DNA of 28,574 nucleotides from Fidelibacterota bacterium (GTDB lineage: Bacteria; Fidelibacterota; UBA8477), in assembly GCA_021734045.1 (NCBI GenBank), contig JAIPJR010000036.1, forward strand, positions 1-28,574. Reading direction: 5' to 3'. The position numbers and the translations under genes are program-made. The stretch's first letter is position 1; the number at the start of each line of letters is the position of its first letter. Positions 1 to 21,353 of this stretch are shown here, in pieces. The notes below the pieces were generated by a model. The model searched no databases. It saw only the letters and a list, made by a program, of their open reading frames with translations, and was not told the DNA's origin.

Positions 1-1842
1 GCCCATGCGTTTAATCCGCTCCACATCAGACCGCAATCCGGCTTCATCCAAGCGGAAGGGTGGAATGGCGTGAGCCGTCATTCCACCCACTGTATCGCTG
101 GATTCAAAGCTCTCCACCTCAAATCCATCCTGGATAAGAAAATAGGCTGCAGACAATCCGGCTGGTCCACCACCAATTATGGCGACCGTTTTACCATTAA
201 ATTCAGCCACATCCGGATCCGATTTTCCATTGCCCTGTTGCGCAATAAAGTGCTTAATCCTGCGGATGAGCAGCGGGCGGTCATAATTCATGCGCGTGCA
301 TTTTGTCTGACATAAATGATCACATACCAAGCCTGCTACATGGGGAAAGGGATTATTTCTTAGAATGACCTCCAGCGCGCTATCAAAATCGCCCCGGGCA
401 GTATGGTACATATAGGATGGAATATCCTGATTCACAGCGCATTCATTGATACAGGGGGCGGCATTACAATCAAATGGCGTTAACGCTCGGTTAGTTTTTA
501 TTGTACCAGATGCGATTGGGTTCTGATGGTAGCGATTATTTTCTATCACAGCTTCAGCATAGGCGTGGAGATTAGCTAAACCAGCCCGGGGAATGTCAAG
601 TTCGCCATTAGAGGCCGACAGTATAAATTCATGGATATTTGCCGCACCGCTGGCCGAGATTTTTTCATCCAATGTGTCAAGATACTGTTTCAGGCGTGTG
701 TAACCACCGGGCTTCAGCAGGTCTGAGCACATGGTGACCGGGCGAATATTGCACGCCAGGATTTCGGTTACATTGAAGGCATCCACTCCGGCGGAAAAAC
801 TAATATCCAGCGCACCATCAAAATCGGATTGCAGCCGCTCAGCCACCAGCACACTGATGGGATGCAATGCCCTGCCACTCAAATACAGCATGGACGCCTC
901 ATCCGGGAGATTGGGATTCAAATTCTCCACTTCCAGCGTATTGGTTAACTTGACACCAAATTTAACCCCCGCCTGGTGTGCTTCTTTTTCCAGCACATTT
1001 ATCAAATCCACTGCAGCCGGATAGGTCAGATCGTGTTCGAATGCCTCCGCGGGAACGCGAATGTTTCTGAAGTTTAATTTTTCATTTAACAACGCCGGTA
1101 GTTTTTCCGGCCCCAGCAGCGTTGGATTGAGCTTAATTGTGGTGTGAAGCTGCCGCTCCCGGAGCAGGTAGCGGGCAATGCGTTCAATCTCATCCGGCGG
1201 ACACCCGTGCATGGTGGAAAGGGTGATGTTGTTGGTAATGGTTTCCGGGATATGAATTTCTTCAATGCCGGGCAAAATGGGTTTTAACCGCGCGACCCGC
1301 TCTTCCAGCCATTCACCGGCATGGGTCATCCGATCCAGAAACTGTTGCACATTGGCATTGCGAATACCCACCAGATCATATCCCACACTCATGTTAAAGA
1401 TAAATCCGGCCTCCGGTTGCCTGTCCCACTCCAAATGCCTGCGCAACCAGTGGAGCAGAATCCAGGCGTTGAGATATTCACTGAAAGACTGGTTGAGGGT
1501 TAATTCCTGTGACCATTCGCAGTTGTACCCCTCATCCGTCATGTCGATACAGGGCTTGATAACCTCAATATTATCTAGCGTTTGTACTGTCTTTAATTCG
1601 ATGTAGCGGGCACCGCACAGCCAGGCGGCGATAATATTATGGGATAATTGGGTATGCGGACCCGCCGCAACGCCAATGGGTGTTTCGAGCAACTGGTCAT
1701 ATCGTTTCATCCGGTAAGGCTGGCGAGAATGAGGTTCAAACCATAGTGGACGCGGAATGCCGAATAGTGAATCCTGTTCCAATCCACGCAGCATCCATTC
1801 TGCCAAATGCTCTATTTTTATAGGGTAAAGTTTGTCACTCAT
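1..1842 (-). CDS. ygfK: YgfK-like Fe-S/FAD oxidoreductase subunit, 3' end outside window
   Basis: This is a putative NAD(P)H-linked electron-transfer subunit of the selenium-associated molybdenum hydroxylase system, often labelled probable selenate reductase YgfK subunit and implicated in anaerobic urate metabolism. The reading frame is open from ATG at 1842 to base 1, giving 614 codons. E. coli YgfK is about 1030 residues, so roughly the last 40 percent lies beyond the left edge. The N-terminal part is TIM-barrel-like and contains STMHGCPPDEIERIARYLL. A GltD-like double 4Fe-4S domain follows, with cysteines in FDCNAAPCINEC (about residues 455-467) and VCDHLCQTKC (about 505-516). A Rossmann FAD motif IIGGGPAGLSAAY lies near residue 550. 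The start overlaps the ygfM stop by 8 bp, which suggests translational coupling. Family identity is strong. The in vivo substrate (selenate, urate or other) is not shown by the sequence. Confidence 0.93.
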   Translation of the reverse strand, partial: MSDKLYPIKIEHLAEWMLRGLEQDSLFGIPRPLWFEPHSRQPYRMKRYDQLLETPIGVAAGPHTQLSHNIIAAWLCGARYIELKTVQTLDNIEVIKPCIDMTDEGYNCEWSQELTLNQSFSEYLNAWILLHWLRRHLEWDRQPEAGFIFNMSVGYDLVGIRNANVQQFLDRMTHAGEWLEERVARLKPILPGIEEIHIPETITNNITLSTMHGCPPDEIERIARYLLRERQLHTTIKLNPTLLGPEKLPALLNEKLNFRNIRVPAEAFEHDLTYPAAVDLINVLEKEAHQAGVKFGVKLTNTLEVENLNPNLPDEASMLYLSGRALHPISVLVAERLQSDFDGALDISFSAGVDAFNVTEILACNIRPVTMCSDLLKPGGYTRLKQYLDTLDEKISASGAANIHEFILSASNGELDIPRAGLANLHAYAEAVIENNRYHQNPIASGTIKTNRALTPFDCNAAPCINECAVNQDIPSYMYHTARGDFDSALEVILRNNPFPHVAGLVCDHLCQTKCTRMNYDRPLLIRRIKHFIAQQGNGKSDPDVAEFNGKTVAIIGGGPAGLSAAYFLIQDGFEVESFESSDTVGGMTAHAIPPFRLDEAGLRSDVERIKRMG

Positions 1843-2680
1843 GACTACCGACTCCCAGTCGCTGCAGATGATGGCTGATCAATCGTCCAAGAACCTTACG
1901 CCGATAGTCCGCGCTGGCCCGAATGTCATCAATAGGAGCGATGTCTTGCTCTATCAGGGCCTGCCATGCTGCTATGTTCGTTTCACCACCCAGGATAGCT
2001 GTGGTTAATGCATCCAGGAAAACAATGGTCGGTGCCACAGCACCTGCGGTTATCTCAAGGTCGGTGAGTTCGCCATCTTCTGCATTTGAGTAGCGCAATG
2101 CATAATTCACCACCGAGATGGCCATGGCATCCCGCAGACCCAATTTATAGAAGCAGGAGGATCCGGAGACCTTGGGGAGAATAATGGATTGGATAAGTTC
2201 GCCCGGTTCCTGCGTAGTCTGACCAGGGCCGACTAAAAAGTCTTCCAGGCGAGTGGTGCGACTTGCGTGACGACTCACCAGTTTCAATTTGGCATGATAC
2301 AAATAGAGCGACGGCAGCGTGTCGCCGGCCGGTGATGCATTGGCAATATTGCCCGCGAGTGTCGCACGATTCCGGATTTGAACACCGGCAAATTGCGCCG
2401 TGCTCCGCCATAGTGCCGGGTACTCCTGGCGAATCAAATCGGAGTGTTGCAGCGCTTCAATCGTGGTGAGCCCACCGATTTCAATGCCGTTTTCTGTTTC
2501 TGTAATGCCCTGTAGCTCAGTGAGATGCTTGATATTAATCAAGTTATTCGGCAATATGCGTCCCTGCTCATAGCGCGGCATTAAATCGGTTCCGCCTGCT
2601 AAAATCACCGTCGCGTCCGGCGGCAATTCACTAAGTAGCGTCAGACAGTCTTCCAGTCCGTATGGCTGATGGATTTTCAT
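1835..2680 (-). CDS. ygfM: FAD-binding subunit of molybdenum hydroxylase (YgfM-like)
   Basis: This is the FAD subunit of a xanthine-dehydrogenase-family enzyme, passing electrons between the 2Fe-2S subunit and the acceptor. It has 281 residues from MKIHQPYGLEDC. The pyrophosphate-binding motif ILAGGTDLMPRYEQGR lies near the N-terminus. The second FAD motif TLAGNIANASPAGDTLPSL lies near residue 110, and a CO-dehydrogenase flavoprotein C-terminal domain follows. An upstream in-frame ATG at 2845 would give 336 residues, but it lies inside the 2Fe-2S gene and adds unrelated sequence. The start at 2680 gives the usual family length and an exact ATGA overlap with the upstream stop. It sits between the 2Fe-2S subunit gene and ygfK, so all three are probably translated together. 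Confidence 0.93.
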   Translation of the reverse strand: MKIHQPYGLEDCLTLLSELPPDATVILAGGTDLMPRYEQGRILPNNLINIKHLTELQGITETENGIEIGGLTTIEALQHSDLIRQEYPALWRSTAQFAGVQIRNRATLAGNIANASPAGDTLPSLYLYHAKLKLVSRHASRTTRLEDFLVGPGQTTQEPGELIQSIILPKVSGSSCFYKLGLRDAMAISVVNYALRYSNAEDGELTDLEITAGAVAPTIVFLDALTTAILGGETNIAAWQALIEQDIAPIDDIRASADYRRKVLGRLISHHLQRLGVGSHE

Positions 2681-3162
2681 CGTTTCTTTGCCGAATTTTC
2701 TACGGCATCCACCACCTTTTGATAGCCGGTACAGCGACAGATATTGCCCGCCAGGGCGTGGCGAATCTGCTCCCGGTCCGGGTGGGGCGTGTGCGTCAAC
2801 AGCTCTTCCGCTGACAAAATCATTCCCGGAATGCAATACCCACACTGTACCGCATGATCACGAATGAAAGCCTCTTGGAGATCATCCATACCGGCCGCTG
2901 ATTGCAATCCCTCGACCGTGAGAATGGTAGCACCATGACATTCAGCCGCTAATATCAGACAACTGTTTACCGCTTTGCCATCCAACAGTACGGTACAGGC
3001 ACCGCATTCCCCCTCTCCGCAAACCTCCTTTGCGCCGGTGAGTCGTAAGTTTTCCCGTAAAAAGTCCAACAGTCGCAGATGCGTTGGGATTGACGCCCGG
3101 ATGTGCCGGCCATTGATAATGACCTCCAGATCAAACCATTCTGTGGTGTTCACGTGCAGCAT
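2677..3162 (-). CDS. 2Fe-2S subunit of molybdenum hydroxylase (XdhC/CoxS type)
   Basis: This is the small iron-sulfur subunit, with 161 residues, that carries electrons from the molybdenum site to FAD. It has both expected clusters. A plant-ferredoxin-type site reads CGEGECGACTVLLDG (about residues 48-62). The C-terminal helical domain carries CGYCIPGMILSAEELL and GNICRCTGYQKVVDAV. In E. coli XdhD this domain is fused to the molybdenum-binding chain, whereas here it is a separate gene about 6.7 kb downstream of the large subunit. It starts 4 bp after the stop of the threonine-synthase-like gene and overlaps ygfM by 4 bp. E. coli calls the equivalent subunit XdhC, but that symbol is also used for an unrelated maturation protein, so no symbol is assigned. 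Confidence 0.95.
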   Translation of the reverse strand: MLHVNTTEWFDLEVIINGRHIRASIPTHLRLLDFLRENLRLTGAKEVCGEGECGACTVLLDGKAVNSCLILAAECHGATILTVEGLQSAAGMDDLQEAFIRDHAVQCGYCIPGMILSAEELLTHTPHPDREQIRHALAGNICRCTGYQKVVDAVENSAKKR

Positions 3163-3166
3163 GAAT

Positions 3167-4444
3167 TTATTCCAACACGCCCGATCGGGTCAATAATTGT
3201 TCCACCGCCGCCATATCGGGCGCTATCGCGGCGGGCAATTGAATCGATTTCTGGGCGGCGGGAATGTCTTTTAAGCCACTACCGGTGATTAAGACAACCA
3301 CGCTGGCATCCGGGGAAATTTCACCTGTTGCCTGACAGACTTTTAGCCCGGCGTAAGCGGCGGCGGCCGCAGGCTCGGCAAAAATGCCGGAAAATGCCGC
3401 CAATTCGTGCTGCGCCGCCAAAATCCCATTATCGCTCACCAGAACACCACAACCGTTGGAATCGCGTAATGCCCGGAGCGCTTTATGTCCGTCGCGGGGC
3501 CTGTCCACCGTGATACTGTCGGCGATGCTAAGTGCCGCTACGGGTTGTGGTTCTCTTTCACCTTCACTAAAGGCATTCACAACGGAGGCAGATCCTTCCG
3601 CCTGCACTGCCACCAGCCGCGGCATTCGTTCGATCCAACCCAGTTGCAGTAAATCATAGAAGCCCTTATAAACACCACTAAGAATGCAGCCATCCCCCAC
3701 CGGGACCATGACAAAGTCCGGAACCTTCCACGCCAATTGTTCCACAATTTCCAGCGCGACGGTCTTTTTTCCCTCAACCAGCACGGGATTGATGCCCGTG
3801 TTGCGGTTATACCAGCCAAATCGCTCCGCCGCATCATGGGCCAGATCAAATGCCACGTCATAATTCCCCTCAATGGGAACCAGCGTAGCACCATATTGAA
3901 GAATCTGAGTAAGCTTGGCGGGTGGTGCGGAGACGGGCGCGAAAATGACGGCTTGTCGTCCGGTATGGGCGGTCAAAGCGGCCAGGGAAGCGGCGGCATT
4001 CCCGGTACTGGCAGCAACGATGGTGGATAACCCCAACTCACCGGCATGCTGTACACCAATCACCGAAGCCCGATCTTTCAAAGATGCAGATGGATTACGG
4101 GTATCGTCTTTTATCCAGAGATTTTCAAATCCTAAATGACGCGCCAGACGCTCTACCCGGACCAACGGCGTCCCGCCCACCACCAGGGAGCAGTTATTGG
4201 GTGGCGAATGAACAGGTAATAACGGTGCATAGCGCCAAAGTGAACGCTCCGGGTTAGCCATCAGGTCATCGATTTTCCATTCTGCCCCAATAGCATCATA
4301 GTCGTACGCCAAATCCAGATTGGCGCCACATTCCGGGCAGGTATAGGCAAAAACGGATGTGCCTGCATCAGCGCCACAGCTAACACAGGTGGCCTTGAGG
4401 ACGTGTTCAGGGTACGCCTTCACACTGTTTCCGTGCTTATTCAT
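3167..4444 (-). CDS. threonine synthase-like PLP enzyme with N-terminal zinc ribbon
   Basis: This is a fold-type II pyridoxal-phosphate enzyme of the threonine synthase family, 425 residues. The N-terminus has a four-cysteine zinc-ribbon pattern (C20xxC23, C36xxC39), as in many archaeal and deep-branching ThrC proteins. The PLP lysine is predicted at K123 in NPSASLKDRAS. A STGNAA loop follows near residue 145, then VPVGDGCILSGVYKGF near 247 and a C-terminal LITGSGLKD. The last is typical of threonine synthases. No homoserine kinase or other threonine gene is nearby. The gene starts inside the last codons of the preceding PLP gene (8-bp overlap) and lies within a purine-degradation operon. A catabolic role, such as beta-elimination on a diamino acid, is therefore plausible but inferred. 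Ordinary threonine synthesis cannot be excluded. Confidence 0.85.
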   Translation of the reverse strand: MNKHGNSVKAYPEHVLKATCVSCGADAGTSVFAYTCPECGANLDLAYDYDAIGAEWKIDDLMANPERSLWRYAPLLPVHSPPNNCSLVVGGTPLVRVERLARHLGFENLWIKDDTRNPSASLKDRASVIGVQHAGELGLSTIVAASTGNAAASLAALTAHTGRQAVIFAPVSAPPAKLTQILQYGATLVPIEGNYDVAFDLAHDAAERFGWYNRNTGINPVLVEGKKTVALEIVEQLAWKVPDFVMVPVGDGCILSGVYKGFYDLLQLGWIERMPRLVAVQAEGSASVVNAFSEGEREPQPVAALSIADSITVDRPRDGHKALRALRDSNGCGVLVSDNGILAAQHELAAFSGIFAEPAAAAAYAGLKVCQATGEISPDASVVVLITGSGLKDIPAAQKSIQLPAAIAPDMAAVEQLLTRSGVLE

Positions 4445-5903
4445 ATTCCTTCATTAATCCGGTTCGCTCATTGAACGCCTCGATTTTTTCATCCCATTCA
4501 TCCACCTGGCCGAAATGATCAGGCCAGTAATTTTCATCGTACCACTGGGCATTCAACTCGGCCACCGTTTTCCCCTGCTGCTCCACCCAGGTAAAGTACT
4601 TAAGATTATGCATTCGTTTCCGATCATAATAGGTCAATTCAAGCAAATCGTCCTTATCGGCATTCATAAGACGCCCTTCAAAATCAACGGCAGCCTGGGT
4701 GGTGGTATATTCCCCAAACCGATCACGGGCCTGCTGAACGCGGCTGGCGTACATTTCCATGCTATCTGTTGCCACAGTAAAAATCACATCGTTGCTGTTG
4801 AACTCGTAGTATTTGGCCATTTTTATGGCACCCAGCATGTTGGCGATGCCTGAAATACCCAGCAGACTTAGGTTCTTCACCACATCTTCGGAAACGCCCT
4901 TGGACAGCAGGTATTCATGGCCCGTCGGCTCATTGAAGAGCCGCATCAGGTTCATCACCACCTCATCATCCAAATCTACCACCATGTCCATGTTGCGAAC
5001 ATTGTGCACCCAGGGCACATGTTTGTCTCCAATGCCTTCAATCCGATGCGCGCCAAAACCATTTTGCAGAAGTGTTGGACACTGGACGGCTTCGCCAGCT
5101 GCAATTTTCAGATTGGGGAAGCGGGTTTTCAGATAATCACCACTGCCCAGCGTGCCGGCTGATCCCTGGGTGAGAAACAGGCCACTGAAGCGCTGGTTTA
5201 TCTGCCGTGCCGCCTGGAAAACTTCCTCCATAGCCGGTCCGGTGACGGTATAATGCCAGAGAGGATTGCCCATCTCGTCAAATTGATTCAGCGTGATAAT
5301 TTCGTCGCCGCGCTGTGCTTTCAGTTCCTTCACCTTGTCGTAAATTTCCTTTACATTGCTCTCGCCGCCCGGTGTGGCAATGACTTCGGAGCCAACCTTG
5401 TGAAGCCAATCAAACCGTTCCTGTGACATTTCCTCCGGTAAAACAGCGATGGAACCACAACCCAGCAGGTAGGCATCGTAAGCGCCACCCCGGCAATAAT
5501 TTCCGGTCGATGGCCATAATGCCCGTTGGGTTGTTGGATCAAACGCACCGGTAACGAGCCTGGAAACCAGTGGACCAAAGGTGGCACCGACTTTATGCGA
5601 TCCGGTGGGGAAATATTTCCCGATGAGGACCATAATGCGGGCATCCACACCGGTGAGTTCACCCGGCAATTCCATGTAATTCACGCCACCAAATCCACCA
5701 CCAAATGGAACCATCTCGTTTTTCCAGGTGATACGGAACAGATTCAAAGAATTCAGGTCCCAAAGACCAATGTCACTGAGTTTGGCTTTGATTTTATCCG
5801 GTATCAGTTCAGGATTGCGCATCTGTTTGTAGGTGGGAATGATGATATGCCGTTCCCGGCACCGTTTGACTGTGTTTTCCAGTATCTGCTGTTGATTCGT
5901 CAT
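4437..5903 (-). CDS. TrpB/cysteine-synthase-superfamily PLP enzyme, substrate unknown
   Basis: This is a long fold-type II PLP enzyme, 488 residues. The Schiff-base lysine is predicted at K104 in YFPTGSHKVGATFG. WPSTGNYCRGGAY looks like the substrate-carboxylate loop. A serine/glycine-rich phosphate-binding loop, TQGSAGTLGSGDYL, lies near residue 245. The first 60 residues and the acidic, aromatic-rich C-terminal 90 residues lie outside the core fold. It is clearly not a standard TrpB, because the TrpB hallmark around the lysine is absent. It is also much longer than diaminopropionate ammonia-lyase (YgeX, about 400 residues), whose motifs I do not see. It sits 56 bp after ygeW and overlaps the next PLP gene by 8 bp, so the two may form one functional unit. 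Its position suggests a role in breaking down an amino-acid intermediate of purine catabolism, which is an inference. Confidence 0.8.
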   Translation of the reverse strand: MTNQQQILENTVKRCRERHIIIPTYKQMRNPELIPDKIKAKLSDIGLWDLNSLNLFRITWKNEMVPFGGGFGGVNYMELPGELTGVDARIMVLIGKYFPTGSHKVGATFGPLVSRLVTGAFDPTTQRALWPSTGNYCRGGAYDAYLLGCGSIAVLPEEMSQERFDWLHKVGSEVIATPGGESNVKEIYDKVKELKAQRGDEIITLNQFDEMGNPLWHYTVTGPAMEEVFQAARQINQRFSGLFLTQGSAGTLGSGDYLKTRFPNLKIAAGEAVQCPTLLQNGFGAHRIEGIGDKHVPWVHNVRNMDMVVDLDDEVVMNLMRLFNEPTGHEYLLSKGVSEDVVKNLSLLGISGIANMLGAIKMAKYYEFNSNDVIFTVATDSMEMYASRVQQARDRFGEYTTTQAAVDFEGRLMNADKDDLLELTYYDRKRMHNLKYFTWVEQQGKTVAELNAQWYDENYWPDHFGQVDEWDEKIEAFNERTGLMKEYE

Positions 5904-5959: not shown

Positions 5960-6943
5960 TTATCGCCCGCCCATGGTTAATGCCATGACCGCTTTGGAAG
6001 TGTGCAGACGGTTTTCCGCCTCGTCATATACGATGGCGTGTGGTCCGTCAATGACCGCGTCTTCCACCTCATTCCCCCGGTCGGCCGGCAGGGCGTGCAT
6101 ATACAACGCATCCGGTTTGGCGAGCGTCATTCGGTCAACTGTGCATTTCCATGCCTTGTTTTTTGTGAGTAATTCATCCACCACATCTTTACCAGGATTG
6201 CTGACCCAACTCCCCCAGTTTTTGGGGATCACCACATCCGCATCCCGGTAAGCGGCGTCTTGATCATGGGTAATGGTGAGCGAACCGTCATTCGCTTCCG
6301 CATTTTTACGCGCCTGTTCAATCACCCATTCGGGCAGCTCATATCCCTCCGGATAGGCCAGGGTCACATCCATACCGAACCGGGGAAAAAGCAGCACCTG
6401 GGAAACCGGAACCGAAATGGGTTTTTTATGGCTGGTGGCATACGCCCAGATCACGGAGACTTTCAGGTTATCCGTCCGTGGTCGCTTTTCCCGAATCGTC
6501 ATGAGGTCAGCAATTGCCTGTAGTGGGTGGTACAAATCGCACTGCATGTTGATGATGGGTACGGTTGACCATTTTGCCATGTCATTCAGGTATTTATTGC
6601 CAATTTCCCAGAAACAATTTCGGCAGGCAATGGCGTGACCATACCGGGACAGAATAATGGCCGTATCCTTAGCGACTTCACCGTGGGAAACCTGCATGGT
6701 GCTGGTGTCCAGAAAATGGCCGTGACCACCCAATTGGGTAATACCGGCTTCCATGGAATTCCGGGTGCGGGTGGATTGCTCGAAGAACATGAGGAATACT
6801 GTTTCGTTCGTAAGATAATTCGTGGTTTCCCGGAGGGCGAATTTGCGTTTCAAATCCATAGAAACATCCAGCAGGGTCTCAACTTCCTCCCGGCTCCAGT
6901 CCTGTAGTGTGATGAAATGTTTACCTCGAAAATTTGTCTGCAT
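5960..6943 (-). CDS. ygeW: YgeW-type knotted carbamoyltransferase
   Basis: This is a probable carbamoyltransferase of the purine cluster, expected to work between a carbamoylated intermediate and carbamoyl phosphate. Carbamoyl phosphate could then yield ATP through a carbamate kinase. The carbamoyl-phosphate motif is FEQSTRTRNS (about residues 54-63), and the second binding motif is CDLYHPLQAIAD. The segment WAYATSHKKPISVPVSQ matches the proline-rich loop of knotted transcarbamylases such as N-acetylornithine carbamoyltransferase and YgeW. A further active-site motif, YMHALPADRG, lies near the C-terminus. At 327 residues it is about 70 shorter than E. coli YgeW (396), mainly through a shorter middle insert and C-terminus, but the frame is intact. 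An AGGA-type ribosome site lies about 9 bases before the ATG. No carbamate kinase gene is visible in the window. Confidence 0.88.
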   Translation of the reverse strand: MQTNFRGKHFITLQDWSREEVETLLDVSMDLKRKFALRETTNYLTNETVFLMFFEQSTRTRNSMEAGITQLGGHGHFLDTSTMQVSHGEVAKDTAIILSRYGHAIACRNCFWEIGNKYLNDMAKWSTVPIINMQCDLYHPLQAIADLMTIREKRPRTDNLKVSVIWAYATSHKKPISVPVSQVLLFPRFGMDVTLAYPEGYELPEWVIEQARKNAEANDGSLTITHDQDAAYRDADVVIPKNWGSWVSNPGKDVVDELLTKNKAWKCTVDRMTLAKPDALYMHALPADRGNEVEDAVIDGPHAIVYDEAENRLHTSKAVMALTMGGR

Positions 6944-7216: not shown

Positions 7217-8470
7217 CTACTCTGCCAGGTTCGCTGTGGTTGAGGGCATTTTCCCGGCAAAATCCTTCACATAGATGGTGGGAATGACCGCGTACATAGC
7301 TGCCGCTTGCACCAACTCATCCTTCCATGTCATTTCATTGGGCGCGTGAGCCTGATCTTCATGGCCTGGTCCGAATCCAATACAGGGAATGCCGTAGCGA
7401 CCCATGATGGCGACGCCATTGGTGGAGAATGTCCATTTATCAATGAGTGGTTTTTGATGAAATAACTGCTCATACGCTCTCACCAGTGTCTCAGTAGCCG
7501 GATGATTTTCTTCAATCAACCAGGTTGGAAAATAGGACTCGGATGGATAGGTAAGTCCGGTATAGGATGGGCGCGCGTATTGATATAACGCCACGTCGGC
7601 GCCATATCTTTTCACCGCTGGCAGATTCCGGATTTCCAAAAGCGCCGATTCAGCTGTCTCCCCAAAAGTGAGACGCCGGTCAATTGAGATGGAGCACCCA
7701 TCAGCTACAGCGCAGCGTGAGGGTGAACTGAAAAAGATTTCGGAAACCGTTAGGGAGCCTTTTCCCAGAAAATCATGGTGCTTGAGCCGGGGATGTAGTT
7801 GCTCCAACGCTTGAATAATCTCAGCCATTTTGTAAATGGCATTATCCCCCCGTTCCGGTGCTGATCCGTGGGCGCTTAGACCTTGGACGGTGACCTGAAT
7901 CTCCATCCGACCACGATGCCCGCGATAGATATTGCAGGATGTGGGTTCGGTTATGACGACAAATTCCGGGATGATATGCTCCTCCTGGATCAGGTACTGC
8001 CAACAGAGTCCGTCACAATCTTCCTCCTGTACAGTTGCAGTGATGAATAGTGTGTAATCCCCTTCCAAACCCAATTCCCGGATAATTTTGCCGGCATAAA
8101 CCATGGCAGCCAGGCCCCCCTCCTGATCTGATGCACCGCGGCCCACAATAATTTGGTCATCTTCAAATCCCTGATAGGGGTCGTACTTCCACAAACTCTG
8201 ATTGCCCACACCCACCGTGTCGATGTGGGCGTCCATGGCGATAATGTGTTTTCCATGCCCAATCCGTCCGATGAGATTACCCATACCATCAATACGGGTT
8301 TCATCGAATCCGACTTTCTCCATCTCCTGCTTTATTCGCTGAATGACCCCTGCTTCCTGCGTGCTCTCGCTGGGAATGGCTATGATGTCTCGTAAAAAAC
8401 GCGTAATTTCATCACGATTTTTACCCGCAAATTTTCGGACTTTTTCAAAATCAATGGCTGCTTCAGACAT
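7217..8470 (-). CDS. ygeY: YgeY-family M20 metallohydrolase
   Basis: This is a dinuclear-zinc amidohydrolase/deacylase of the peptidase M20 superfamily, of the YgeY type that accompanies selenium-dependent hydroxylase clusters. It has 417 residues (E. coli YgeY about 403). Metal and catalytic motifs appear in order: [11 protein letters not shown] (first histidine ligand with catalytic aspartate), [10 protein letters not shown] (bridging aspartate), TVQEEDCDG (catalytic base and ligand glutamates), and [13 protein letters not shown] (final histidine). The lid/dimer domain begins near [10 protein letters not shown]. An AGGTGA ribosome site directly precedes the ATG. The likely task is hydrolysis of an acylated or carbamoylated amino-acid intermediate between the hydantoinase and the carbamoyltransferase or PLP steps. 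That ordering is inferred from studies of the gut urate cluster. The gene is separated from ssnA by 123 bp. Confidence 0.92.
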
Positions 8471-8593: not shown

Positions 8594-9913
8594 CTATTTC
8601 AATTTCTCCATCGCCTGCCACAGCCGGCCCGAGGCCACACGGGCATTCTCAAGGATTTCACGCCCATCAATACCCACCGGATCACCATTTCGGATCATAA
8701 AAGCACCATCAGTCATCACATCGTCCGGTTGACCCAATCCATACAGCAAATGGGCAGCCCAATTTTCATAAGAAAGTTCAGTGCGGGCCTGATAATCGTA
8801 GAAGACCAGATCAGCCGGTACACCCGGTTCGATCCAGTTCAGATTATACCCAAACAGTTTGGAAGCAATCCGGGGGTTGTTTTCAAACAACAGCTTCAAA
8901 TAATCCACATTGGGCTGACCCTGTGTCATTTTACTGCTGCGTATGAGTGCACCGGTCCGTGCTTCATCCAGTAAATTCGCCTGCATACCATCGGTGCCCA
9001 GGCCATAGCCCAACAATTCCAGCGTCACACCATTCAGTATCCCCACACGATTATTGGCGTTGGAGGTGGGATTGTGGACCAGATTAGCATTGCTGTTAAA
9101 TAATGTATCCGCGTCGTCGGGCGTGATGTGAATACCATGGGCATACAGGTTATGTGAGTGGATGAGGTCATATTCGCTAAGTCGCTGTACAACAGACTGA
9201 TAGCCCCGTTCACCTGAATCGTGGTGATCGGTAATGTCTTCCGCCAGATGGATATGAATGCCGGTCTCCGGAAAATCGTCCAAAGCCCGCCGAACCGTTT
9301 CCAGGGATTCGTCCGACAAGGTGAAGGAAGCGTGCAATCCCAGCATGGGATGAACCACCGGATCATTTTGGTAACGCTCCATCGTAGTAAGATTTTCCGC
9401 CAGCCCTTGCTGAAAATTCTCCGCACCATTCCGGTCAGATACTTCGTATGCTGTGGAAATTTTGATTCCCATTTCCCGGGCTACATCCGCCAAAAGAGTC
9501 AGCGATCCTTTAATCCAAGCCGGACTAGAGTGATGGTCAAACACCGTGGTTACACCGGTACGCAGACACGCCAGCAATCCCGCTTGAAATGAGACACGAA
9601 TCGAATCTTCATCCAGCGCCCGGTCCAGTCGCCACCAAACCGATTCCAGGATTTGGCGGAAATTTACCGGTGCCCGGGACGGTGGCGGCATTCCCATCGC
9701 CAAAGTGGAATAGAGATGGGTGTGGGCGTTCACCATTCCCGGCAGGACCAATTTCCCGGACATGTTGATTTCGGTCTCCTCCGGCTCCAACAGTACCGGC
9801 ATTTCACCAAAGGCGGCAATGCGCCCGTCAATCAACCGAATCCAACCCGTTTCAATAAATGCCGGTTCGCTGTACGGACGCAAAATCCTCAAATGCGTTA
9901 ATACCTTATTCAT
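8594..9913 (-). CDS. ssnA: SsnA-type amidohydrolase / aminohydrolase
   Basis: This is a metal-dependent deaminase/aminohydrolase of the amidohydrolase superfamily, SsnA family, 439 residues (E. coli SsnA 442). Metal-binding motifs appear in order: VNAHTHLYSTLAMGM, then IHLAEDITDHHDSG near residue 225, AHGIHITPDDADTL near 260, and LGTDGMQANLLDEAR near 310. These are the HxH, H, H and D ligands of the cytosine-deaminase-like subgroup. The start MNKVLTHLRIL at 9913 is preferred over an in-frame ATG at 9931 that lies inside the upstream gene, because it gives the family length and an 8-bp overlap with the hydroxylase stop. It probably deaminates a purine or purine-derived ring made by the adjacent molybdenum hydroxylase. 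The exact substrate is unknown. Confidence 0.92.
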   Translation of the reverse strand: MNKVLTHLRILRPYSEPAFIETGWIRLIDGRIAAFGEMPVLLEPEETEINMSGKLVLPGMVNAHTHLYSTLAMGMPPPSRAPVNFRQILESVWWRLDRALDEDSIRVSFQAGLLACLRTGVTTVFDHHSSPAWIKGSLTLLADVAREMGIKISTAYEVSDRNGAENFQQGLAENLTTMERYQNDPVVHPMLGLHASFTLSDESLETVRRALDDFPETGIHIHLAEDITDHHDSGERGYQSVVQRLSEYDLIHSHNLYAHGIHITPDDADTLFNSNANLVHNPTSNANNRVGILNGVTLELLGYGLGTDGMQANLLDEARTGALIRSSKMTQGQPNVDYLKLLFENNPRIASKLFGYNLNWIEPGVPADLVFYDYQARTELSYENWAAHLLYGLGQPDDVMTDGAFMIRNGDPVGIDGREILENARVASGRLWQAMEKLK

Positions 9914-12194
9914 GAACCACCTTGTCCTCAAATGCCACGAGAACCCGCTCAGGTGTGAGGGGAATCTGATTCATAGGCTGCCCCACGATTCGGCTCACCG
10001 CATTGGCGATGGCGGCCGCTGTGGGAATAATAGCTGGCTCTCCAATACCCTTCGCACCCCACGGCCCCAGCGGCTCCGGATCTTCAATCCAAAACGCTTG
10101 AACATCCACACTGTCTGCAGCGGTTGGCAGCAAATAGGTTGAGAGATTAGGTGTGGTAATTCGACCGGCATTATCATGTCCGAAATTTTCATAGATCGCC
10201 CAACCGGCGCCCTGGACCACACCCCCCTGCACCTGACCTGCCAATCCCGCCGGATTGATTATTTTCCCCACATCATGCGCCGCCCAGACTTTTTGCACCC
10301 GCACCTGACCGGTGAGCGTATCCACCTGCACCCGGGCGATATGGGTGGCGTAACTATATGTGAAATAGGCTTCACCGCGTCCGGTTTGAGCATCATAAGT
10401 CAATGCCGGGACATGCCACCAGCCAAGCGCATCCATGGGGCGGTTCGTTACATAAAGATATTCGCATAATGCACTGATTGATAGGGCATTACCAGATTTT
10501 GTATTAACAACTTGGTCGTTTTGAAAAGCCACATTTTCCGGCGCGCATTCCATCGCCTCGGCTGCAGCAGTTGACAAAATCGGCTTCAATTTTTCCACTG
10601 CATTCCGTATGGCATTACCGGTCATAACAATATTCCTGCTGGCCACCGAGGGTCCACTGTCAGGAACCTGGCTCGTATCGGTGGGCAGAATGGAAATTCT
10701 TTCGGCATTCACACCCAATGCTTCCGCCGTCATCTGGGTCACCACGGTCAGAGCACCCTGTCCCATCTCGATCAGGCCAAATGCCACAGCGATGGAACCA
10801 TCGCGGTTAATCTGAATTTTCACGCCTGCGCCATCCATGGACCAACCGGCTGCACCGAGGCAATTCCCATAGTGACAAACGGACACGCCCAGGGCTTCGC
10901 GGTACCGTCCATCCTTGGACACCATTGGCCTCGCATCAGTCTGCCATTCGGCAGCATTGGCTGATTTTAACAATGTGGCTTCAGCGCCCACGCTGGTGGA
11001 TAGTGCATGTCCTGTCTGGGTTTCCTGACCCGGTTTCAGGATGTTCTTCAGGCGAAATTCCACCGGGTCCATCCCCAGACGATCTGCCAGAATATCCATC
11101 ATCCGCTCATGACCGAATGTTGCCTGGGGTGAGCCAAAGCCTCTAAAGGCGCCGGTAGGAGGCAAATTGGTATAGTACGAGGTCGAATGAACCTGAATAT
11201 TTGGAATGGCGTATGGCCCCATCGCCTGCATTGTTGCCCGGTAGGAAACCACGGAGCTCAGGGTGGCATACGCGCCGGCATTCTCCTCCAGAATAATGTC
11301 CGCCGACAGCAATTTACCGGTTTTGGAAACGCCCACTTTGTAATGCATCTGAAAGGGATGCCGCTTGGAGGTCCATTGCACATCATCCCGCCGGCGATAG
11401 ATCATTTTAACCGGTCGCTGTAAATGCCACGCCGCTACCGCTGCCCGTGCACACATTTCGGACGGGATATCCTCCTTCCCACCGAATGCACCGCCCGTGG
11501 GCGTTTGAATGACGCGGACTTTGCTGAATGAGATTCCCAGAACTTTTGCTATCGCTTTTTGAACATAAAAAACGCATTGAATGGAACCGTAAACGGTAAA
11601 CGCATCACCTTGGGGCACTACGATGCACCCTTGTGGCTCCAGATAAAAATGCTCCTGATAGGGCGTCACTAAATCCGCCTCTACCACCACATCCGCGTCA
11701 GCGAATCCTGCCTGAATATCACCCCGCTCCAGACGGTGCTCACAGGCGATATTGTTTTCGTGAATCTTCTTCCCTGTGGCCATTTTGCTGGCGTTGATGG
11801 AGAGAATTGGCTCCCGGGGGGTGGTGTCAATTTTTACTGAACGGGCAGCGGATATAGCGTCAACTTCCGTCTCCGCCGCCACGATCCCGATAGCGTCACC
11901 CACAAATCGCAGTTTATCCTGCGCGAAAAGTGGCTGATCAGGCAGAATCACACCGACCTGGTTTTCACCGGGAATGTCACCGGCGAACCAGGCGCCTAAA
12001 AAGCCCGGCATTTTACGAGCCGGAGAAATGTCAACGCCATCCAGTGCTCCGAAGGCAATCGGCGACACTACCGGATAAGCGAAAACCATTGAATCAAAGT
12101 GCATATCTGTGATAAACCGGGTCAAACCCGAAACCTTCCCCGGAGCATCAACACGAGGCAGTGATTTACCGATATGGTGAAATTTTTCAGACAT
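9906..12194 (-). CDS. molybdenum-binding subunit of xanthine dehydrogenase-family hydroxylase (XdhD/XdhA-like)
   Basis: This is the large catalytic chain that hydroxylates purines (xanthine, hypoxanthine or a related heterocycle) using molybdopterin, probably with labile selenium given the yqeB/yqeC neighbours. It has 762 residues. Motifs include TGGAFGGKEDIP, AFRGFGSPQATF, GLIEMGQGALTVVTQ and the catalytic-glutamate segment GPWGAKGIGEPA near the C-terminus. E. coli XdhD is about 956 residues because it carries its own 2Fe-2S domain. This protein lacks that domain, which is supplied by the separate gene at 2677-3162, as in the XdhABC arrangement. It is the first gene of the leftward operon and overlaps ssnA by 8 bp. 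No TGA is read as selenocysteine. Selenium in this family is not genetically encoded, so the sequence cannot confirm selenium dependence. Confidence 0.93.
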   Translation of the reverse strand: MSEKFHHIGKSLPRVDAPGKVSGLTRFITDMHFDSMVFAYPVVSPIAFGALDGVDISPARKMPGFLGAWFAGDIPGENQVGVILPDQPLFAQDKLRFVGDAIGIVAAETEVDAISAARSVKIDTTPREPILSINASKMATGKKIHENNIACEHRLERGDIQAGFADADVVVEADLVTPYQEHFYLEPQGCIVVPQGDAFTVYGSIQCVFYVQKAIAKVLGISFSKVRVIQTPTGGAFGGKEDIPSEMCARAAVAAWHLQRPVKMIYRRRDDVQWTSKRHPFQMHYKVGVSKTGKLLSADIILEENAGAYATLSSVVSYRATMQAMGPYAIPNIQVHSTSYYTNLPPTGAFRGFGSPQATFGHERMMDILADRLGMDPVEFRLKNILKPGQETQTGHALSTSVGAEATLLKSANAAEWQTDARPMVSKDGRYREALGVSVCHYGNCLGAAGWSMDGAGVKIQINRDGSIAVAFGLIEMGQGALTVVTQMTAEALGVNAERISILPTDTSQVPDSGPSVASRNIVMTGNAIRNAVEKLKPILSTAAAEAMECAPENVAFQNDQVVNTKSGNALSISALCEYLYVTNRPMDALGWWHVPALTYDAQTGRGEAYFTYSYATHIARVQVDTLTGQVRVQKVWAAHDVGKIINPAGLAGQVQGGVVQGAGWAIYENFGHDNAGRITTPNLSTYLLPTAADSVDVQAFWIEDPEPLGPWGAKGIGEPAIIPTAAAIANAVSRIVGQPMNQIPLTPERVLVAFEDKVVHE

Positions 12195-12431
12195 TTTCAG
12201 AATTATTTACCGTAATTCGGGAAAGAGCAGGACCAGATGATGGGATTCGAGACCCATTGTTTTGGATGTATAATACTGACAATTAATAACTTACGCATGC
12301 TTTCTCCCCTCAGTTGCAGGGTGCCGGTGGCGAAAAGAGTCAATCGGCAGCGATAAATACTGCAACTTCTGTACCTGATTGAAAATCATCCTATCTTCAA
12401 AGTGGTCAATAATTTGCAGCTTGCGGAATGT
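12195..12431. promoter_or_regulatory. divergent control region of the two purine operons
   Basis: This AT-rich gap separates the start codons of the leftward hydroxylase operon and the rightward yqeC operon, and must hold both promoters. A perfect TATAAT lies on the plus strand at 12269-12274, but no good -35 box stands 16-18 bases upstream. An imperfect palindrome GGGATTCGAGACCC (10 of 14 symmetric positions) lies just upstream at 12242-12255 and could be an operator. No known riboswitch structure was recognised. Exact promoter positions remain uncertain. Confidence 0.4.
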
Positions 12432-13166
12432 ATGCGATTCACCCAAATGATATTCGGGGAAAGTGAAATCCTGCCCGGGAATCGAATCGCCATCATGGGC
12501 GGAGGAGGCAAGACCAGTCTGCTGCATCGGTTGGGAGAAGAATTTTCACAGCTATTTCCCCGGGTGGTTATGACTGCCCTAACCCGCTCCGCTGTCCATC
12601 CGGAACACCCAATTTTATTTGCCGATGATGTGCCGGGGCTTGATTTAACACCATTATTCCAACCACAAAAGCCGCTCTGCATTATGGGTGGCCGGGAGAG
12701 AAACAAACTTACCGGTATTTCCGTGGACCAATTGGAACGGATATATCCCCAGGTAGATGTAACGCTATTTGAGTCAGATGGCGCTCGGAATTTGCCTTTA
12801 AAAGCTCACCTGCCCCACGATCCGGTTGTTCCGCCTTTCACCACATTGGTGGTGATTTTGGTGGGGGCAGATGTGGTAAATACCACACTGGCGGATTGCT
12901 GGGTACACAGACCGGACATTTTCCGCGAAAAATGGCAAATCACCCCGAATATGCCGCTATCCGTGGAGTTCATCGCCCGGGTGGTCTCTACACCAGCGGG
13001 TTATTTGGAAAAAGTGCCGGCTGATATTTCACGCATATACTTTGTGAATAAGGGTGATGCGCACAGAGAAAATGCCCGGAAACTGGCCGCGGCGATCCAT
13101 GCCCAGACGCCTGCACCGGTTTTCTGGGGCAGCATTCAGCGCAAATTTTGGGAGTGCGTTTCATGA
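12432..13166 (+). CDS. yqeC: YqeC-like selenium-dependent hydroxylase accessory protein
   Basis: This is a P-loop protein of the YqeC family, associated with maturation of selenium-dependent molybdenum hydroxylases. The nucleotide-binding loop IAIMGGGGKTSLLHRL lies near the N-terminus, as in E. coli YqeC. Other family features are FESDGARNLPLKAH, which holds the likely Walker-B-like acidic residue, and the KVPADISRIYFVNKGD segment. The start is uncertain: GTG at 12402, ATG at 12432 and ATG at 12447 are in frame. The one at 12432 has a short GCGGA upstream and gives an N-terminus of usual length, about 244 residues. It is the first gene of the rightward operon and its stop overlaps the next start in ATGA. 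The biochemical role (selenium or cofactor insertion) is predicted, not proven. Confidence 0.88.
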   Translation: MRFTQMIFGESEILPGNRIAIMGGGGKTSLLHRLGEEFSQLFPRVVMTALTRSAVHPEHPILFADDVPGLDLTPLFQPQKPLCIMGGRERNKLTGISVDQLERIYPQVDVTLFESDGARNLPLKAHLPHDPVVPPFTTLVVILVGADVVNTTLADCWVHRPDIFREKWQITPNMPLSVEFIARVVSTPAGYLEKVPADISRIYFVNKGDAHRENARKLAAAIHAQTPAPVFWGSIQRKFWECVS

Positions 13167-13768
13167 ATGCACTTCGTATAGGTTTTGTCATTCCTGCTGC
13201 CGGACTCTCCCGGCGACATCCACCCAATAAGCTGCTTTTAACTGTGGATGATCAACCGGTAATACGAAGAACCGTTTCCGCTATGCTCGCCCTGCCCTAT
13301 TCGCTCTGCGTCGTTGTGGGATATGAGGCAAACAAGATTATTGCGGCGCTGGCTGGTCTTGATCAATCGCAGTTCAATATCATTGAGAACCCAGCTTATA
13401 AAACCGGGATGGCGAGCGCCATTATTTCCGGAATTACCGCACTGCCTGATGATCTGGATTATTTCGGGTTTTTGCCGGGCGATAAGCCTTTTATCAGGCC
13501 ACATACCATTCATTCCATGATTAGAGATTTAGAAGTACAGAAGCCGGATATTCTGGTTCCCACTTGCCAGGGGCAGCCCGGACATCCCACATTTTTTTTA
13601 AGTACGGCATTCCGGGACGAATTCGTGCGACTTACCGGTGATACAGGCGGTCGGGAAATCATTGAACGCCACCCACAGCAGGTTCGATATTTACCGATGG
13701 ATACGCCGGAGATTATCCTGGATATGGATCGCTGGCTGGAGATGGAGGAGCAAAAGCATGCTGAATAA
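13163..13768 (+). CDS. mocA: MocA/YgfJ-type molybdenum cofactor cytidylyltransferase
   Basis: This is a MobA-like nucleotidyltransferase that converts molybdopterin to the cytosine dinucleotide form used by xanthine-dehydrogenase-family enzymes, 201 residues. The N-terminal nucleotide-binding segment reads IPAAGLSRRHPPNKLLLTVDD. It is a variant of the usual AAGxSxRMGxxK loop, with histidine and prolines in place of MG. The metal-site region GFLPGDKPFIRP lies near residue 106 and QGQPGHPTFFLS near 138, both typical of the family. An in-frame GTG at 13148 exists, but ATG 13163 gives the ATGA overlap with yqeC. Its 3' end overlaps yqeB by 11 bp and contains that gene's GGAGGAG ribosome site. Confidence 0.92.
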   Translation: MNALRIGFVIPAAGLSRRHPPNKLLLTVDDQPVIRRTVSAMLALPYSLCVVVGYEANKIIAALAGLDQSQFNIIENPAYKTGMASAIISGITALPDDLDYFGFLPGDKPFIRPHTIHSMIRDLEVQKPDILVPTCQGQPGHPTFFLSTAFRDEFVRLTGDTGGREIIERHPQQVRYLPMDTPEIILDMDRWLEMEEQKHAE

Positions 13769-14570
13769 ACCGGTGATTATCGTACGCGGTGCCGGTGAGC
13801 TGGGCAGCGCGGTGGCTTTGACACTGAATCGGGTGGGTTATCCGGTCATTTTAACCGAGCGATCGGAGCCGCTGGCCATTCGACGCCCTGTAACCTTCAG
13901 CGATGCTGTTTTTACGGGCACAGCTTCCGTTGAGGAAATCACTGCCGTTCGGACAATCCCCAGTGAGCTCGATGAGATATTGCATGCTCAGGCTATCCCG
14001 CTAATCGTGACGGACGATCTTCCTGATTTCCATTTTCCGGTTCAGGCGTTAATCGACGCGCGGATGCTGAAGGATTCAGGCATTACACGCCCGTCACAGA
14101 TCCCGTGGGTAATTGGGCTGGGACCCGGTTTTGAAGTCGGACGAAATTGTGATGTCATTATCGAAACCCAGCGGGGACACGATCTGGGCCGGGTATTGTG
14201 GCACGGCTGCGCTGCAACCAATTCGGGTGTGCCCGGTGAGATTGGCGGTGAAAGTCGTAAACGGGTGATTTACTCCCCCATCGCCGGTCAGGTTAAATGG
14301 GGGGTGGATTTCGGAAAAATGGTTCAGGCAGGACAGCCCATGGGCAGGATAACCGCTGATCATATCATTACTGCTCCCATATCGGGACTGGTGCGGGGAT
14401 TGATATCGCCCCTGGTCACTGTGAAAGCGGGTGTTAAAATAGGCGATGTGGATCCGCGGGGAAGTCAGGTATCCTATCAACGCATCTCCGAAAAAGCGCG
14501 CAACATCGCCCGCGGTGTTTTGGAGGCATTGTTGATGTTGGAAAACAATAGCTTTGTAGAAAGACCATAG
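13758..14570 (+). CDS. yqeB: YqeB / EF2563-family selenium-dependent hydroxylase maturation protein (short form)
   Basis: This is a maturation protein of the selenium-dependent molybdenum hydroxylase system, 270 residues. It begins with a Rossmann-like segment, IIVRGAGELGSAVALTLNR. Family-typical stretches include VIGLGPGFEVGRNCDVIIETQRGHDLGRV near residue 120 and a biotinyl/lipoyl-like C-terminal region with YSPIAGQVKWGVDFGKMVQAG and ITAPISGLVRGLISP. E. coli YqeB is about 541 residues. Here the XdhC-like part is a separate gene directly downstream. The start ATG 13758 follows GGAGGAG by 7 bases and lies within the end of mocA. An earlier in-frame ATG at 13638 lies deep in mocA and was rejected. 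Confidence 0.9.
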   Translation: MLNKPVIIVRGAGELGSAVALTLNRVGYPVILTERSEPLAIRRPVTFSDAVFTGTASVEEITAVRTIPSELDEILHAQAIPLIVTDDLPDFHFPVQALIDARMLKDSGITRPSQIPWVIGLGPGFEVGRNCDVIIETQRGHDLGRVLWHGCAATNSGVPGEIGGESRKRVIYSPIAGQVKWGVDFGKMVQAGQPMGRITADHIITAPISGLVRGLISPLVTVKAGVKIGDVDPRGSQVSYQRISEKARNIARGVLEALLMLENNSFVERP

Positions 14571-14642
14571 AAAAAATTGCCCTTCGACCCTGCTACGCTT
14601 TGCTTCGCACGGGCAGGCAAAGCTCAGGGAGACAATTTTTTC
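14570..14642. repeat. long hairpin / dispersed repeat between yqeB and the XdhC-like gene
   Basis: Perfect 10-base arms GAAAAAATTG (14570-14579) and CAATTTTTTC (14633-14642) enclose a GC-rich interior. The interior has its own pairings, such as CCCT with AGGG and either CCTGC with GCAGG or CTTTGC with GCAAAG. The arms begin at the last base of the yqeB stop codon. The interior resembles the common CCCTTCGAC...CTCAGGG dispersed repeat. The T-rich right arm followed by TTTTTT could act as a rho-independent terminator or attenuator, but the operon continues beyond it. It could also be an mRNA-processing or stabilising element. Confidence 0.6.
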
Positions 14643-14666
14643 TTTTTTGCCAATCATGGATTAATT

Positions 14667-21055: not shown

Positions 21056-21353
21056 GAAGCGCGCCTTCTAAAAATTTAATCTGTTTCTTTACCTGTGATA
21101 AATGTTTGCGATAAAGTACCCGCTTCTGTTTGGCATCCGCATATAAGGATTTGGTTTCATCGGAGACAGTTTTACCGATGTATTCAAACTGAACTTTGCC
21201 TTGAATGCGTTTTACAATGTAAAAATATTCATGTCCATTGATTTTCTTTTTTATCAGACTACCGACCGGTAAGCGCTGCAACGCAGCCTCATAATCCGAT
21301 TTCATCCTGCGGGAATTTTCCAGTTCTTCACTCAAAACGCTGTAGATACTCAT
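21039..21353 (-). CDS. small basic protein, possible partner/antitoxin of the nucleotidyltransferase
   Basis: This is a 104-residue lysine-rich protein of unknown function. It has an N-terminal helical part (MSIYSVLSEELENSRRMKSD), a central beta-rich core (LPVGSLIKKKINGHEYFYIV, then VQFEYIGKTVSDE) and a basic helical tail. The G-x-Y/F...GK core recalls small proteins that accompany nucleotidyltransferases in accessory regions. ATG 21353 is favoured because AGAGGAG lies 4 bases upstream. An in-frame start at 21374 would sit in the operator region. It overlaps the nucleotidyltransferase gene by 17 bp and is the first gene behind a promoter packed with repeated half-sites. It may therefore be the DNA-binding or antitoxin component, which is inferred. 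Confidence 0.65.
   Translation of the reverse strand: MSIYSVLSEELENSRRMKSDYEAALQRLPVGSLIKKKINGHEYFYIVKRIQGKVQFEYIGKTVSDETKSLYADAKQKRVLYRKHLSQVKKQIKFLEGALRGKSA

What the first reader, a model, noticed from the sequence alone, without database searches (positions are those of the whole stretch)
3167..5903. Two coupled fold-type II PLP enzymes where diaminopropionate ammonia-lyase is expected
In the E. coli-type cluster, ygeX (diaminopropionate ammonia-lyase) follows ygeW. Here ygeW is followed by a 488-residue TrpB-superfamily enzyme of unknown substrate and a zinc-ribbon threonine-synthase-like enzyme, overlapping by 8 bp. Neither shows YgeX motifs. No threonine-pathway gene is nearby. The pair may carry out the amino-acid elimination or replacement step of purine degradation by a different route, possibly as a complex.
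Basis: partly seen in the sequence, partly recalled or inferred. Interest (0 to 1): 0.75.

Follow-up and report, generated by a model that had tools for sequence, protein, structure and literature searches.

The report
Enzyme pair replacing purine-pathway enzyme YgeX
In many anaerobic bacteria the last step of uric-acid breakdown, done in E. coli by one enzyme (YgeX), seems to be taken over by two others: one mislabelled threonine synthase, and a cysteine-synthase relative whose active site suggests it makes serine.

Summary
Two fold-type II PLP genes (488 aa at 4437-5903, 425 aa at 3167-4444, minus strand, 8-bp overlap) sit where E. coli has ygeX, inside a complete reductive uric-acid cluster (xdh, ygfK, ssnA, hyuA, carbamoyltransferase, ygeY). 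The housekeeping reading fails. The genome has no YgeX, and it and two congeners lack homoserine dehydrogenase. All 64 orthologues of the 425-aa enzyme lack the arginine found in threonine synthases, although the HMMs call it threonine synthase. Of 41 surveyed SsnA-positive genomes carrying the 488-aa gene, 39 also have the 425-aa gene and only 4 have YgeX. The pair is also found in Bacillota uric-acid clusters. Best reading: the 425-aa enzyme (THC) does YgeX's job (diaminopropionate to pyruvate plus ammonia); in one cluster YgeX replaces it, with the 488-aa enzyme still present. The 488-aa enzyme is a cysteine-synthase-fold protein with an invariant Asp293, aligned with Asp232 of Fusobacterium cysteine (hydroxyl) lyase, which swaps SH for OH to give serine. 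One lineage has a recruited CysK in the same slot with the same Ala-to-Asp change. Diaminopropionate to serine is predicted. Substrates are inferred, not measured; an obligate complex is not supported.

The parts
4437..5903 (-). 488-aa fold-type II PLP enzyme ('PLP488'), CysK/beta-substituted-alanine-synthase fold with N-terminal (about 1-35) and C-terminal (about 410-488) extensions
   Evidence: (VIA Z 35.8 to beta-cyanoalanine synthase), model mean pLDDT 90
3167..4444 (-). 425-aa zinc-ribbon threonine-synthase-like PLP enzyme ('THC'), proposed YgeX replacement
4437..4444 (-). 8-bp overlap of the two genes, suggesting translational coupling
5592..5594 (-). codon of Lys104 of PLP488, predicted Schiff-base lysine (PTGSHKVG), invariant
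5025..5027 (-). codon of Asp293 of PLP488 (HRIEGIGDKHVPW), aligned with Asp232 of Fn1055, invariant
   Evidence: read
3779..3781 (-). codon of Leu222 of THC, at the position of the Arg of true threonine synthases (NPxRxEGQK)
5960..6943 (-). short OTC-type carbamoyltransferase in the ygeW position
7217..8470 (-). ygeY (M20 hydrolase, 65% to E. coli YgeY)
8594..9931 (-). ssnA-like aminohydrolase
9906..12194 (-). xanthine-dehydrogenase-type molybdenum subunit
2677..3162 (-). xanthine-dehydrogenase-type Fe-S subunit
1835..2845 (-). xanthine-dehydrogenase-type FAD subunit
1..1842 (-). ygfK, N-terminal 614 aa, runs off the contig end (38% to E. coli YgfK)
15695..16960 (+). hyuA (D-hydantoinase family)
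12402..15698 (+). yqeC, mocA, yqeB and xdhC-type maturation genes

Best explanation
The pair is the amino-acid end module of a reductive uric-acid pathway that lacks YgeX. THC, a paralogue of threonine synthase, takes the YgeX step and splits 2,3-diaminopropionate (DAP) into pyruvate and ammonia. PLP488 is a second enzyme of cysteine-synthase fold. It removes the beta-substituent of DAP (or of the ureido precursor albizziin) to an aminoacrylate, and Asp293 lets water add back, giving serine plus ammonia (or urea). Serine can then feed pyruvate or, through serine hydroxymethyltransferase, glycine and one-carbon units. Shown: location in the cluster, co-occurrence, absence of YgeX, loss of the threonine-synthase arginine, invariance of Asp293. 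Inferred: both substrates, both products, and the order of steps.
For: Pathway membership: the window carries xdh, ygfK, ssnA, hyuA, a carbamoyltransferase and ygeY around the pair. Most of 80 fetched loci show the same company in several phyla. Survey of 60 genomes including the window's own: with ssnA (42), THC 38, PLP488 31, YgeX 2; without ssnA (18), THC 1, PLP488 2, YgeX 0 (Fisher p 2.5e-10 for THC, 8.9e-6 for PLP488, not corrected for kinship). Of 50 PLP488-bearing genomes, 41 have ssnA; 39 of these 41 have THC and 4 have YgeX. Not housekeeping: only three PALP genes in the genome, and no homoserine dehydrogenase there or in two congeners. The arginine of true ThrC is T, L, M or C in 64 of 64 THC, but R in 4 of 4 true ThrC; THC is one clade. 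THC stands in for YgeX: L153 has HyuA-PLP488-SsnA-Xdh-YgeX-YgfK-OTC-YgeY with no THC; L221 and L222 have YgeY-OTC-THC-YqeA, THC next to OTC and one gene from YgeY; in six Bacillota genomes YgeX lies outside the uric-acid cluster and THC inside it. PLP488: CysK-type fold. Asp293 aligns with Asp232 of Fn1055, the residue mutated to Asn in 5b55; Fn1055 turns L-cysteine plus water into L-serine plus H2S, with Asp232 critical (PMC12940168, PMC9865163). Asp is present in 53 of 53 PLP488, 9 of 9 Bacillota PLP460 and Fn1055; E. coli CysK has Ala. In family f3 the slot holds a recruited CysK (46% to E. coli CysK, 30% to PLP488) that also has Asp (3 of 3), whereas its five nearest solved CysK have Ala. 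Serine hydroxymethyltransferase adjoins the pair or THC in L187, L200, L202, L220 and L095.
Against: No activity has been measured. Asp at this position does not fix the substrate, and cystathionine beta-synthase has an Asp one residue further on. The AGAT-linked Aminicenantes genomes have PLP488 without ssnA or THC, so PLP488 can work outside purine breakdown. A few genomes carry YgeX together with the pair (G085, G095, G099; G268; G040 and G044). THC lacks the YgeX aspartate of TDGNHG, so it may not take the D-isomer that has been proposed as the intermediate.
Confidence: 0.45

Rival explanations
1. Sequential route: PLP488 turns DAP plus water into serine, and THC then deaminates serine to pyruvate, so that the two enzymes together equal one YgeX.
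For: Near-obligate pairing in the surveyed FCB-group genomes; Asp293; the THC model also resembles L-serine and threonine dehydratases (Z 34-36).
Against: L153 has PLP488 with YgeX instead of THC, which makes THC rather than the pair equivalent to YgeX. Several Bacillota clusters hold THC with no PLP488-like gene in the stretch read (L198, L204, L206, L210).
Confidence: 0.2
2. Stereochemical split: YgeX accepts both enantiomers of DAP. Here one enzyme racemises D-DAP or takes D-DAP, and the other takes L-DAP.
For: Intermediates of R (D) configuration have been proposed and YgeX takes both isomers (PMC12990295; PMC12507026). THC and PLP488 lack the Asp that YgeX has next to GN. Aminicenantes PLP488 lies beside an Amidohydro_3 (D-aminoacylase-type) gene.
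Against: PLP488 coexists with a YgeX that has the TDGNHG motif in L153, and the Fn1055-like Asp293 is not a known racemase feature.
Confidence: 0.12
3. The two proteins form an obligate heteromeric enzyme.
For: Gene overlap, and THC directly downstream of PLP488 in 36 loci.
Against: Genes are 4-12 kb apart or unlinked in Cloacimonadota, f6 and Chloroflexota; each occurs in a cluster without the other. No complex could be modelled here.
Confidence: 0.08
4. Housekeeping: THC is the threonine synthase and PLP488 the cysteine synthase of the cell, placed here by chance.
For: NCBIfam calls THC threonine synthase above cut-off (NF006050 320.7 against 303; TIGR00260 198 against 167.1); the genome has no other ThrC or CysK.
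Against: No homoserine dehydrogenase in three congeners, arginine lost in 64 of 64, strong linkage to uric-acid genes in several phyla, Asp instead of the CysK Ala.
Confidence: 0.04
5. PLP488 serves sulfur or selenium delivery to the molybdenum hydroxylases rather than the carbon pathway.
For: In f6 it follows yqeB and a DUF364 gene, and its fold family includes H2S-producing enzymes.
Against: Elsewhere its neighbours are the carbamoyltransferase, carbamate kinase, HyuA or THC; Fn1055-type chemistry yields serine.
Confidence: 0.05

Closest known systems
YgeX, 2,3-diaminopropionate ammonia-lyase (TIGR03528, NF006058)
   Same: Fold-type II PLP enzyme at the end of the reductive uric-acid pathway; THC occupies the same kind of place (beside carbamoyltransferase, ygeY, hyuA, yqeA)
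   Different: THC scores 50-57 bits against cut-offs of 276-532, has STGN instead of TDGN, and carries a zinc ribbon; PLP488 is more distant still
Threonine synthase, zinc-ribbon type (TIGR00260, NF006050)
   Same: Closest fold (Z 44) and HMM family of THC, 35% identity to solved enzymes over the catalytic domain
   Different: Arginine of the NPxRxEGQK motif absent in 64 of 64; no homoserine pathway in the genome; separate clade tied to uric-acid genes
Fn1055, cysteine (hydroxyl) lyase of Fusobacterium nucleatum (PDB 5b53, 5z5c)
   Same: CysK fold with Asp at the GI[GS]D position and a [ST][ST]GN loop and Gln that align; proposed same water-for-substituent chemistry
   Different: Only 27% identity; PLP488 has N- and C-terminal extensions, GDK instead of SDE, and a different gene context
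CysK / beta-cyanoalanine synthase / O-ureido-L-serine synthase
   Same: Fold family of PLP488 (Z 33-36)
   Different: Ala in place of Asp293 in the CysK sequences seen; PLP488 is 100 to 150 residues longer; it scores 103 bits against a CysK cut-off of 351
Reductive uric-acid degradation cluster of E. coli and C. difficile (PMC12507026)
   Same: XdhD, YgfK, SsnA, HyuA, carbamoyltransferase and YgeY functions all present in the window
   Different: YgeX replaced by the pair; that survey assigned YgeX by Pfam PF00291 alone, which the pair also matches

Membership tests
Diaminopropionate ammonia-lyase (YgeX) | Score above TIGR03528 / NF006058 cut-off | tested here: not met
   THC 50 and 57 bits, PLP488 19 bits; cut-offs 532 and 276
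Diaminopropionate ammonia-lyase (YgeX) | Aspartate before GN (TDGNHG) | tested here: not met
   THC STGN, PLP488 STGN; YgeX TDGNHG
Diaminopropionate ammonia-lyase (YgeX) | Activity on DAP | not testable with these tools
   needs an assay
Threonine synthase | Score above HMM cut-offs | tested here: met
   THC 320.7 against 303 (NF006050), 198 against 167.1 (TIGR00260)
Threonine synthase | Arg of NPxRxEGQK (substrate-phosphate contact; role recalled from the Thermus structure, not checked here) | tested here: not met
   R in 4 of 4 true ThrC (one beside thrB), T/L/M/C in 64 of 64 THC
Threonine synthase | Homoserine pathway in the genome | tested here: not met
   PF00742 absent in the window's genome (92% complete) and two congeners, present in 40 of 60
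Cysteine synthase (CysK) | HMM cut-off TIGR01139 | tested here: not met
   PLP488 103 bits against 351
Cysteine synthase (CysK) | Fold and PLP-site motifs (Lys, [ST][ST]GN, Gln, G-rich phosphate loop, Ser at pyridine N) | tested here: met
Cysteine (hydroxyl) lyase, Fn1055-like | Asp232 equivalent | tested here: met
   Asp293, 53 of 53
Cysteine (hydroxyl) lyase, Fn1055-like | Serine-forming beta-replacement with water | not testable with these tools
   needs an assay
Reductive uric-acid cluster | xdh, ygfK, ssnA, hyuA, ygeW-type, ygeY together | tested here: met
Knotted carbamoyltransferase YgeW | HMM cut-off and about 396-aa length | tested here: not met
   327 aa, 181 bits against 453

The most novel reading that the evidence does not exclude
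A widespread, overlooked branch of anaerobic purine degradation in which a cysteine-synthase-fold enzyme exchanges the beta-amino (or ureido) group of the purine-derived C3 unit for water. The product is serine, and through serine hydroxymethyltransferase glycine and one-carbon units, alongside a threonine-synthase-derived DAP lyase. The water-using Asp arose at least twice (PLP488 and the recruited CysK of family f3).
Probability: 0.35. Interest if true: 0.75.

Novelty: new variant of a known kind. Interest (0 to 1): 0.6.

Why it matters
The reductive uric-acid pathway was described only in 2025 and is discussed for gout. Its last step has been taken to be YgeX wherever a PF00291 protein lies near SsnA. 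Here the step appears to use different enzymes in Bacteroidota, Chlorobiota, Cloacimonadota, the window's phylum, Chloroflexota, Synergistota and many Bacillota. This changes how uric-acid degraders should be counted and how carbon leaves the pathway (pyruvate or serine). It also exposes a family that the NCBI models NF006050 and TIGR00260 would name threonine synthase, and gives a function to test for an unnamed 488-aa PLP family.

Tried and rejected
OrtB (ornithine thiolase): considered from memory; no NCBIfam model of that name came up. TrpB: PLP488 shares only the GSHK motif; the fold matches are CysK-type. Search by the family name 'PLP-dependent protein subunit beta' in papers gave nothing useful. 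Looking for the ThrC arginine and the DAPAL aspartate in papers failed, so the arginine's role is quoted from memory. Searches for prior mention of the pair found none in the library held. Plasmid homologues at 42% (Rhizobium, Bosea) lie near amino-acid transporters, M20 hydrolases and TauE exporters with no purine genes, so they did not settle the substrate. The core of NF006050 (573-690 bits) is a different, Arg-containing group without uric-acid neighbours. The ssnA-like genes of G025 and G055 stand alone and are probably not uric-acid genes.
Full report
1. What is there. The window is one whole contig (C118) of a 2.5-Mb, 92% complete genome whose nearest named relative is a Candidatus Neomarinimicrobiota bacterium (L016, 92% identity for the 488-aa protein). 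On the minus strand lie ygfK (cut by the contig end), the FAD and Fe-S subunits of a xanthine-dehydrogenase-type enzyme, THC (425 aa), PLP488 (488 aa), a short carbamoyltransferase, ygeY, ssnA and the molybdenum subunit. On the plus strand follow yqeC, mocA, yqeB, an xdhC-type gene and hyuA. This is the gene set of the reductive uric-acid pathway (PMC12507026) except that ygeX is missing. The two genes overlap by 8 bp.

2. The genome has three PF00291 genes: the pair and a third on another contig whose sequence reads as a TrpB2-type protein. A YgeX search finds only weak cross-hits in the genus. Homoserine dehydrogenase is absent from the genome and two congeners but present in 40 of 60 genomes, so THC has no threonine-synthase substrate there. 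One caveat is that these genomes are 82-92% complete.

3. Co-occurrence. In 60 genomes including the window's own, 42 have an ssnA homologue. THC orthologues (40% identity or more) are in 38 of these, PLP488 in 31 and YgeX in 2; in the 18 without ssnA the numbers are 1, 2 and 0. Fisher p is 2.5e-10 for THC and 8.9e-6 for PLP488, ignoring kinship. Several of the missing cases are probably contig breaks (L150, L162). In 50 other genomes that carry PLP488, 41 have ssnA (E of 1e-89 or better); 39 of these 41 have THC and 4 have YgeX. The four Aminicenantes genomes with an amidinotransferase beside PLP488 have neither ssnA nor a THC orthologue. They form one clade inside the purine-linked tree of PLP488, so the purine link appears older.

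4. The pair reaches Bacillota. Of 249 Bacillota genomes, a set scores 300-340 bits with NF006050. Their loci are uric-acid clusters with THC, often beside a 60-64% PLP488 or a 36-43% relative of about 460 aa (PLP460). In L221 and L222 the order is YgeY-OTC-THC-YqeA-PLP460. In six of these genomes YgeX exists elsewhere, outside the uric-acid cluster, and THC is the PLP enzyme inside it (L204/L205, L206/L207, L210/L211, L212/L213, L214/L215, L216/L217). G268 has both a YgeX-YgeY-YgeW cluster and a PLP488-THC-Xdh-SsnA cluster, which is not explained.

5. Which member replaces YgeX. In L153 the cluster reads HyuA-PLP488-SsnA-Xdh-YgeX-YgfK-OTC-YgeY: YgeX is present, THC is not, and PLP488 remains. 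This points to THC as the YgeX equivalent and to PLP488 as a second activity.

6. THC is not a threonine synthase. Its fold and HMM family are those of threonine synthase (Z 44). In 64 of 64 THC sequences from FCB-group, Chloroflexota and Bacillota genomes, the arginine of the true ThrC motif NPxRxEGQK is T, L, M or C. It is R in four true ThrC, one of them beside thrB, and the solved ThrC aligned have it too. From memory, this arginine holds the substrate phosphate in the Thermus enzyme. THC forms one clade (SH-aLRT 100) apart from ThrC and from the core of NF006050.

7. PLP488. The model (pLDDT 90, pTM 0.91) matches beta-cyanoalanine synthase, CysK, CBS and O-ureidoserine synthase (Z 33-36). 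The regions before about residue 31 and after about 410 were barely tested by these matches. The PLP lysine, the [ST][ST]GN loop, the Gln and the pyridine Ser are kept. Asp293 in HRIEGIGDKH is invariant. It aligns with Asp232 of Fusobacterium Fn1055, as shown by the D232N entry 5b55, which differs from 5b53 at that letter. Fn1055 exchanges the SH of cysteine for OH from water to give serine, and Asp232 is reported as critical (PMC12940168, PMC9865163). E. coli CysK has Ala there.

8. An independent replacement. In family f3 (five genomes) the cluster holds THC, and in place of PLP488 a 350-aa protein that is 46% identical to E. coli CysK and 30% to PLP488. Three of three copies read have Asp at the same position, while its five nearest solved CysK have Ala. 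A CysK recruited to this slot has thus taken the same residue, which argues that the slot needs this chemistry.

9. Serine. A serine hydroxymethyltransferase gene adjoins the pair or THC in four Bacillota loci (L187, L200, L202, L220) and in Synergistota L095. This fits a serine product, which could yield glycine and one-carbon units.

10. Mechanism proposed. THC: DAP to pyruvate and two ammonia. PLP488: DAP plus water to serine and ammonia, through an aminoacrylate. Because ygeY is missing from 22 of 50 PLP488 genomes, PLP488 might instead take albizziin and release urea, or a second carbamoyltransferase may replace YgeY. The substrates are inference; only assays can decide.

11. Relation to the literature. 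Li and co-workers marked YgeX in their SsnA network by PF00291 (PMC12507026, Fig. 3g legend). Both proteins here match PF00291, so part of that signal may be THC and PLP488. No paper in the library held was found that describes the pair.

12. Verdict. A real, widespread variant of a recently described pathway, with a named candidate for each enzyme's reaction and simple tests.

Noticed in passing
window 5960-6943: The gene in the ygeW place is a short 327-aa OTC-type carbamoyltransferase, not the 396-aa knotted YgeW; other genera of the same order have a true YgeW there.
   Followed up: partly
L018, L023, L024, L039, L044, L062: Cloacimonadota uric-acid clusters hold two or three carbamoyltransferase paralogues plus a carbamate kinase, and G065, G066 and G074 lack ygeY; the second ureido group may be removed phosphorolytically, saving energy.
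   Followed up: partly
L068, L069, L072, L079: Aminicenantes PLP488 sits between an Lrp-type regulator plus an AGAT-like amidinotransferase and, in some, an Amidohydro_3 (D-aminoacylase-like) gene, with no ssnA in the genome; substrate unknown.
   Followed up: partly
window 23736-25406: Amidohydro_3 protein with a lipoprotein- or Tat-like leader, same Pfam family as UacY of C. difficile; relatives lie close to PLP488 in L088 and L093.
   Followed up: partly
L198 11774-13111: A UbiD-like decarboxylase gene inside a THC-HyuA-YqeA cluster with a purine-type ABC transporter; may point to another route.
   Followed up: no
L208 / L209 (G268): One Bacillota genome holds both a YgeX-YgeY-YgeW-YqeA cluster and a PLP488-THC-Xdh-SsnA cluster.
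   Followed up: no
L016, L048, L055, L057: A second molybdenum hydroxylase set and a second SsnA-like amidohydrolase (8-oxoguanine deaminase family in the L147 homologue) follow ygfK downstream of the pair.
   Followed up: no
window 20375-21374: NTP_transf_8 nucleotidyltransferase overlapping a small unnamed 111-aa gene, arranged like a toxin-antitoxin or defence pair.
   Followed up: no
L105, L106: Rhizobium and Bosea plasmid homologues of PLP488 (42%) keep Asp293 and lie near TauE sulfite exporters and amino-acid transporters.
   Followed up: partly
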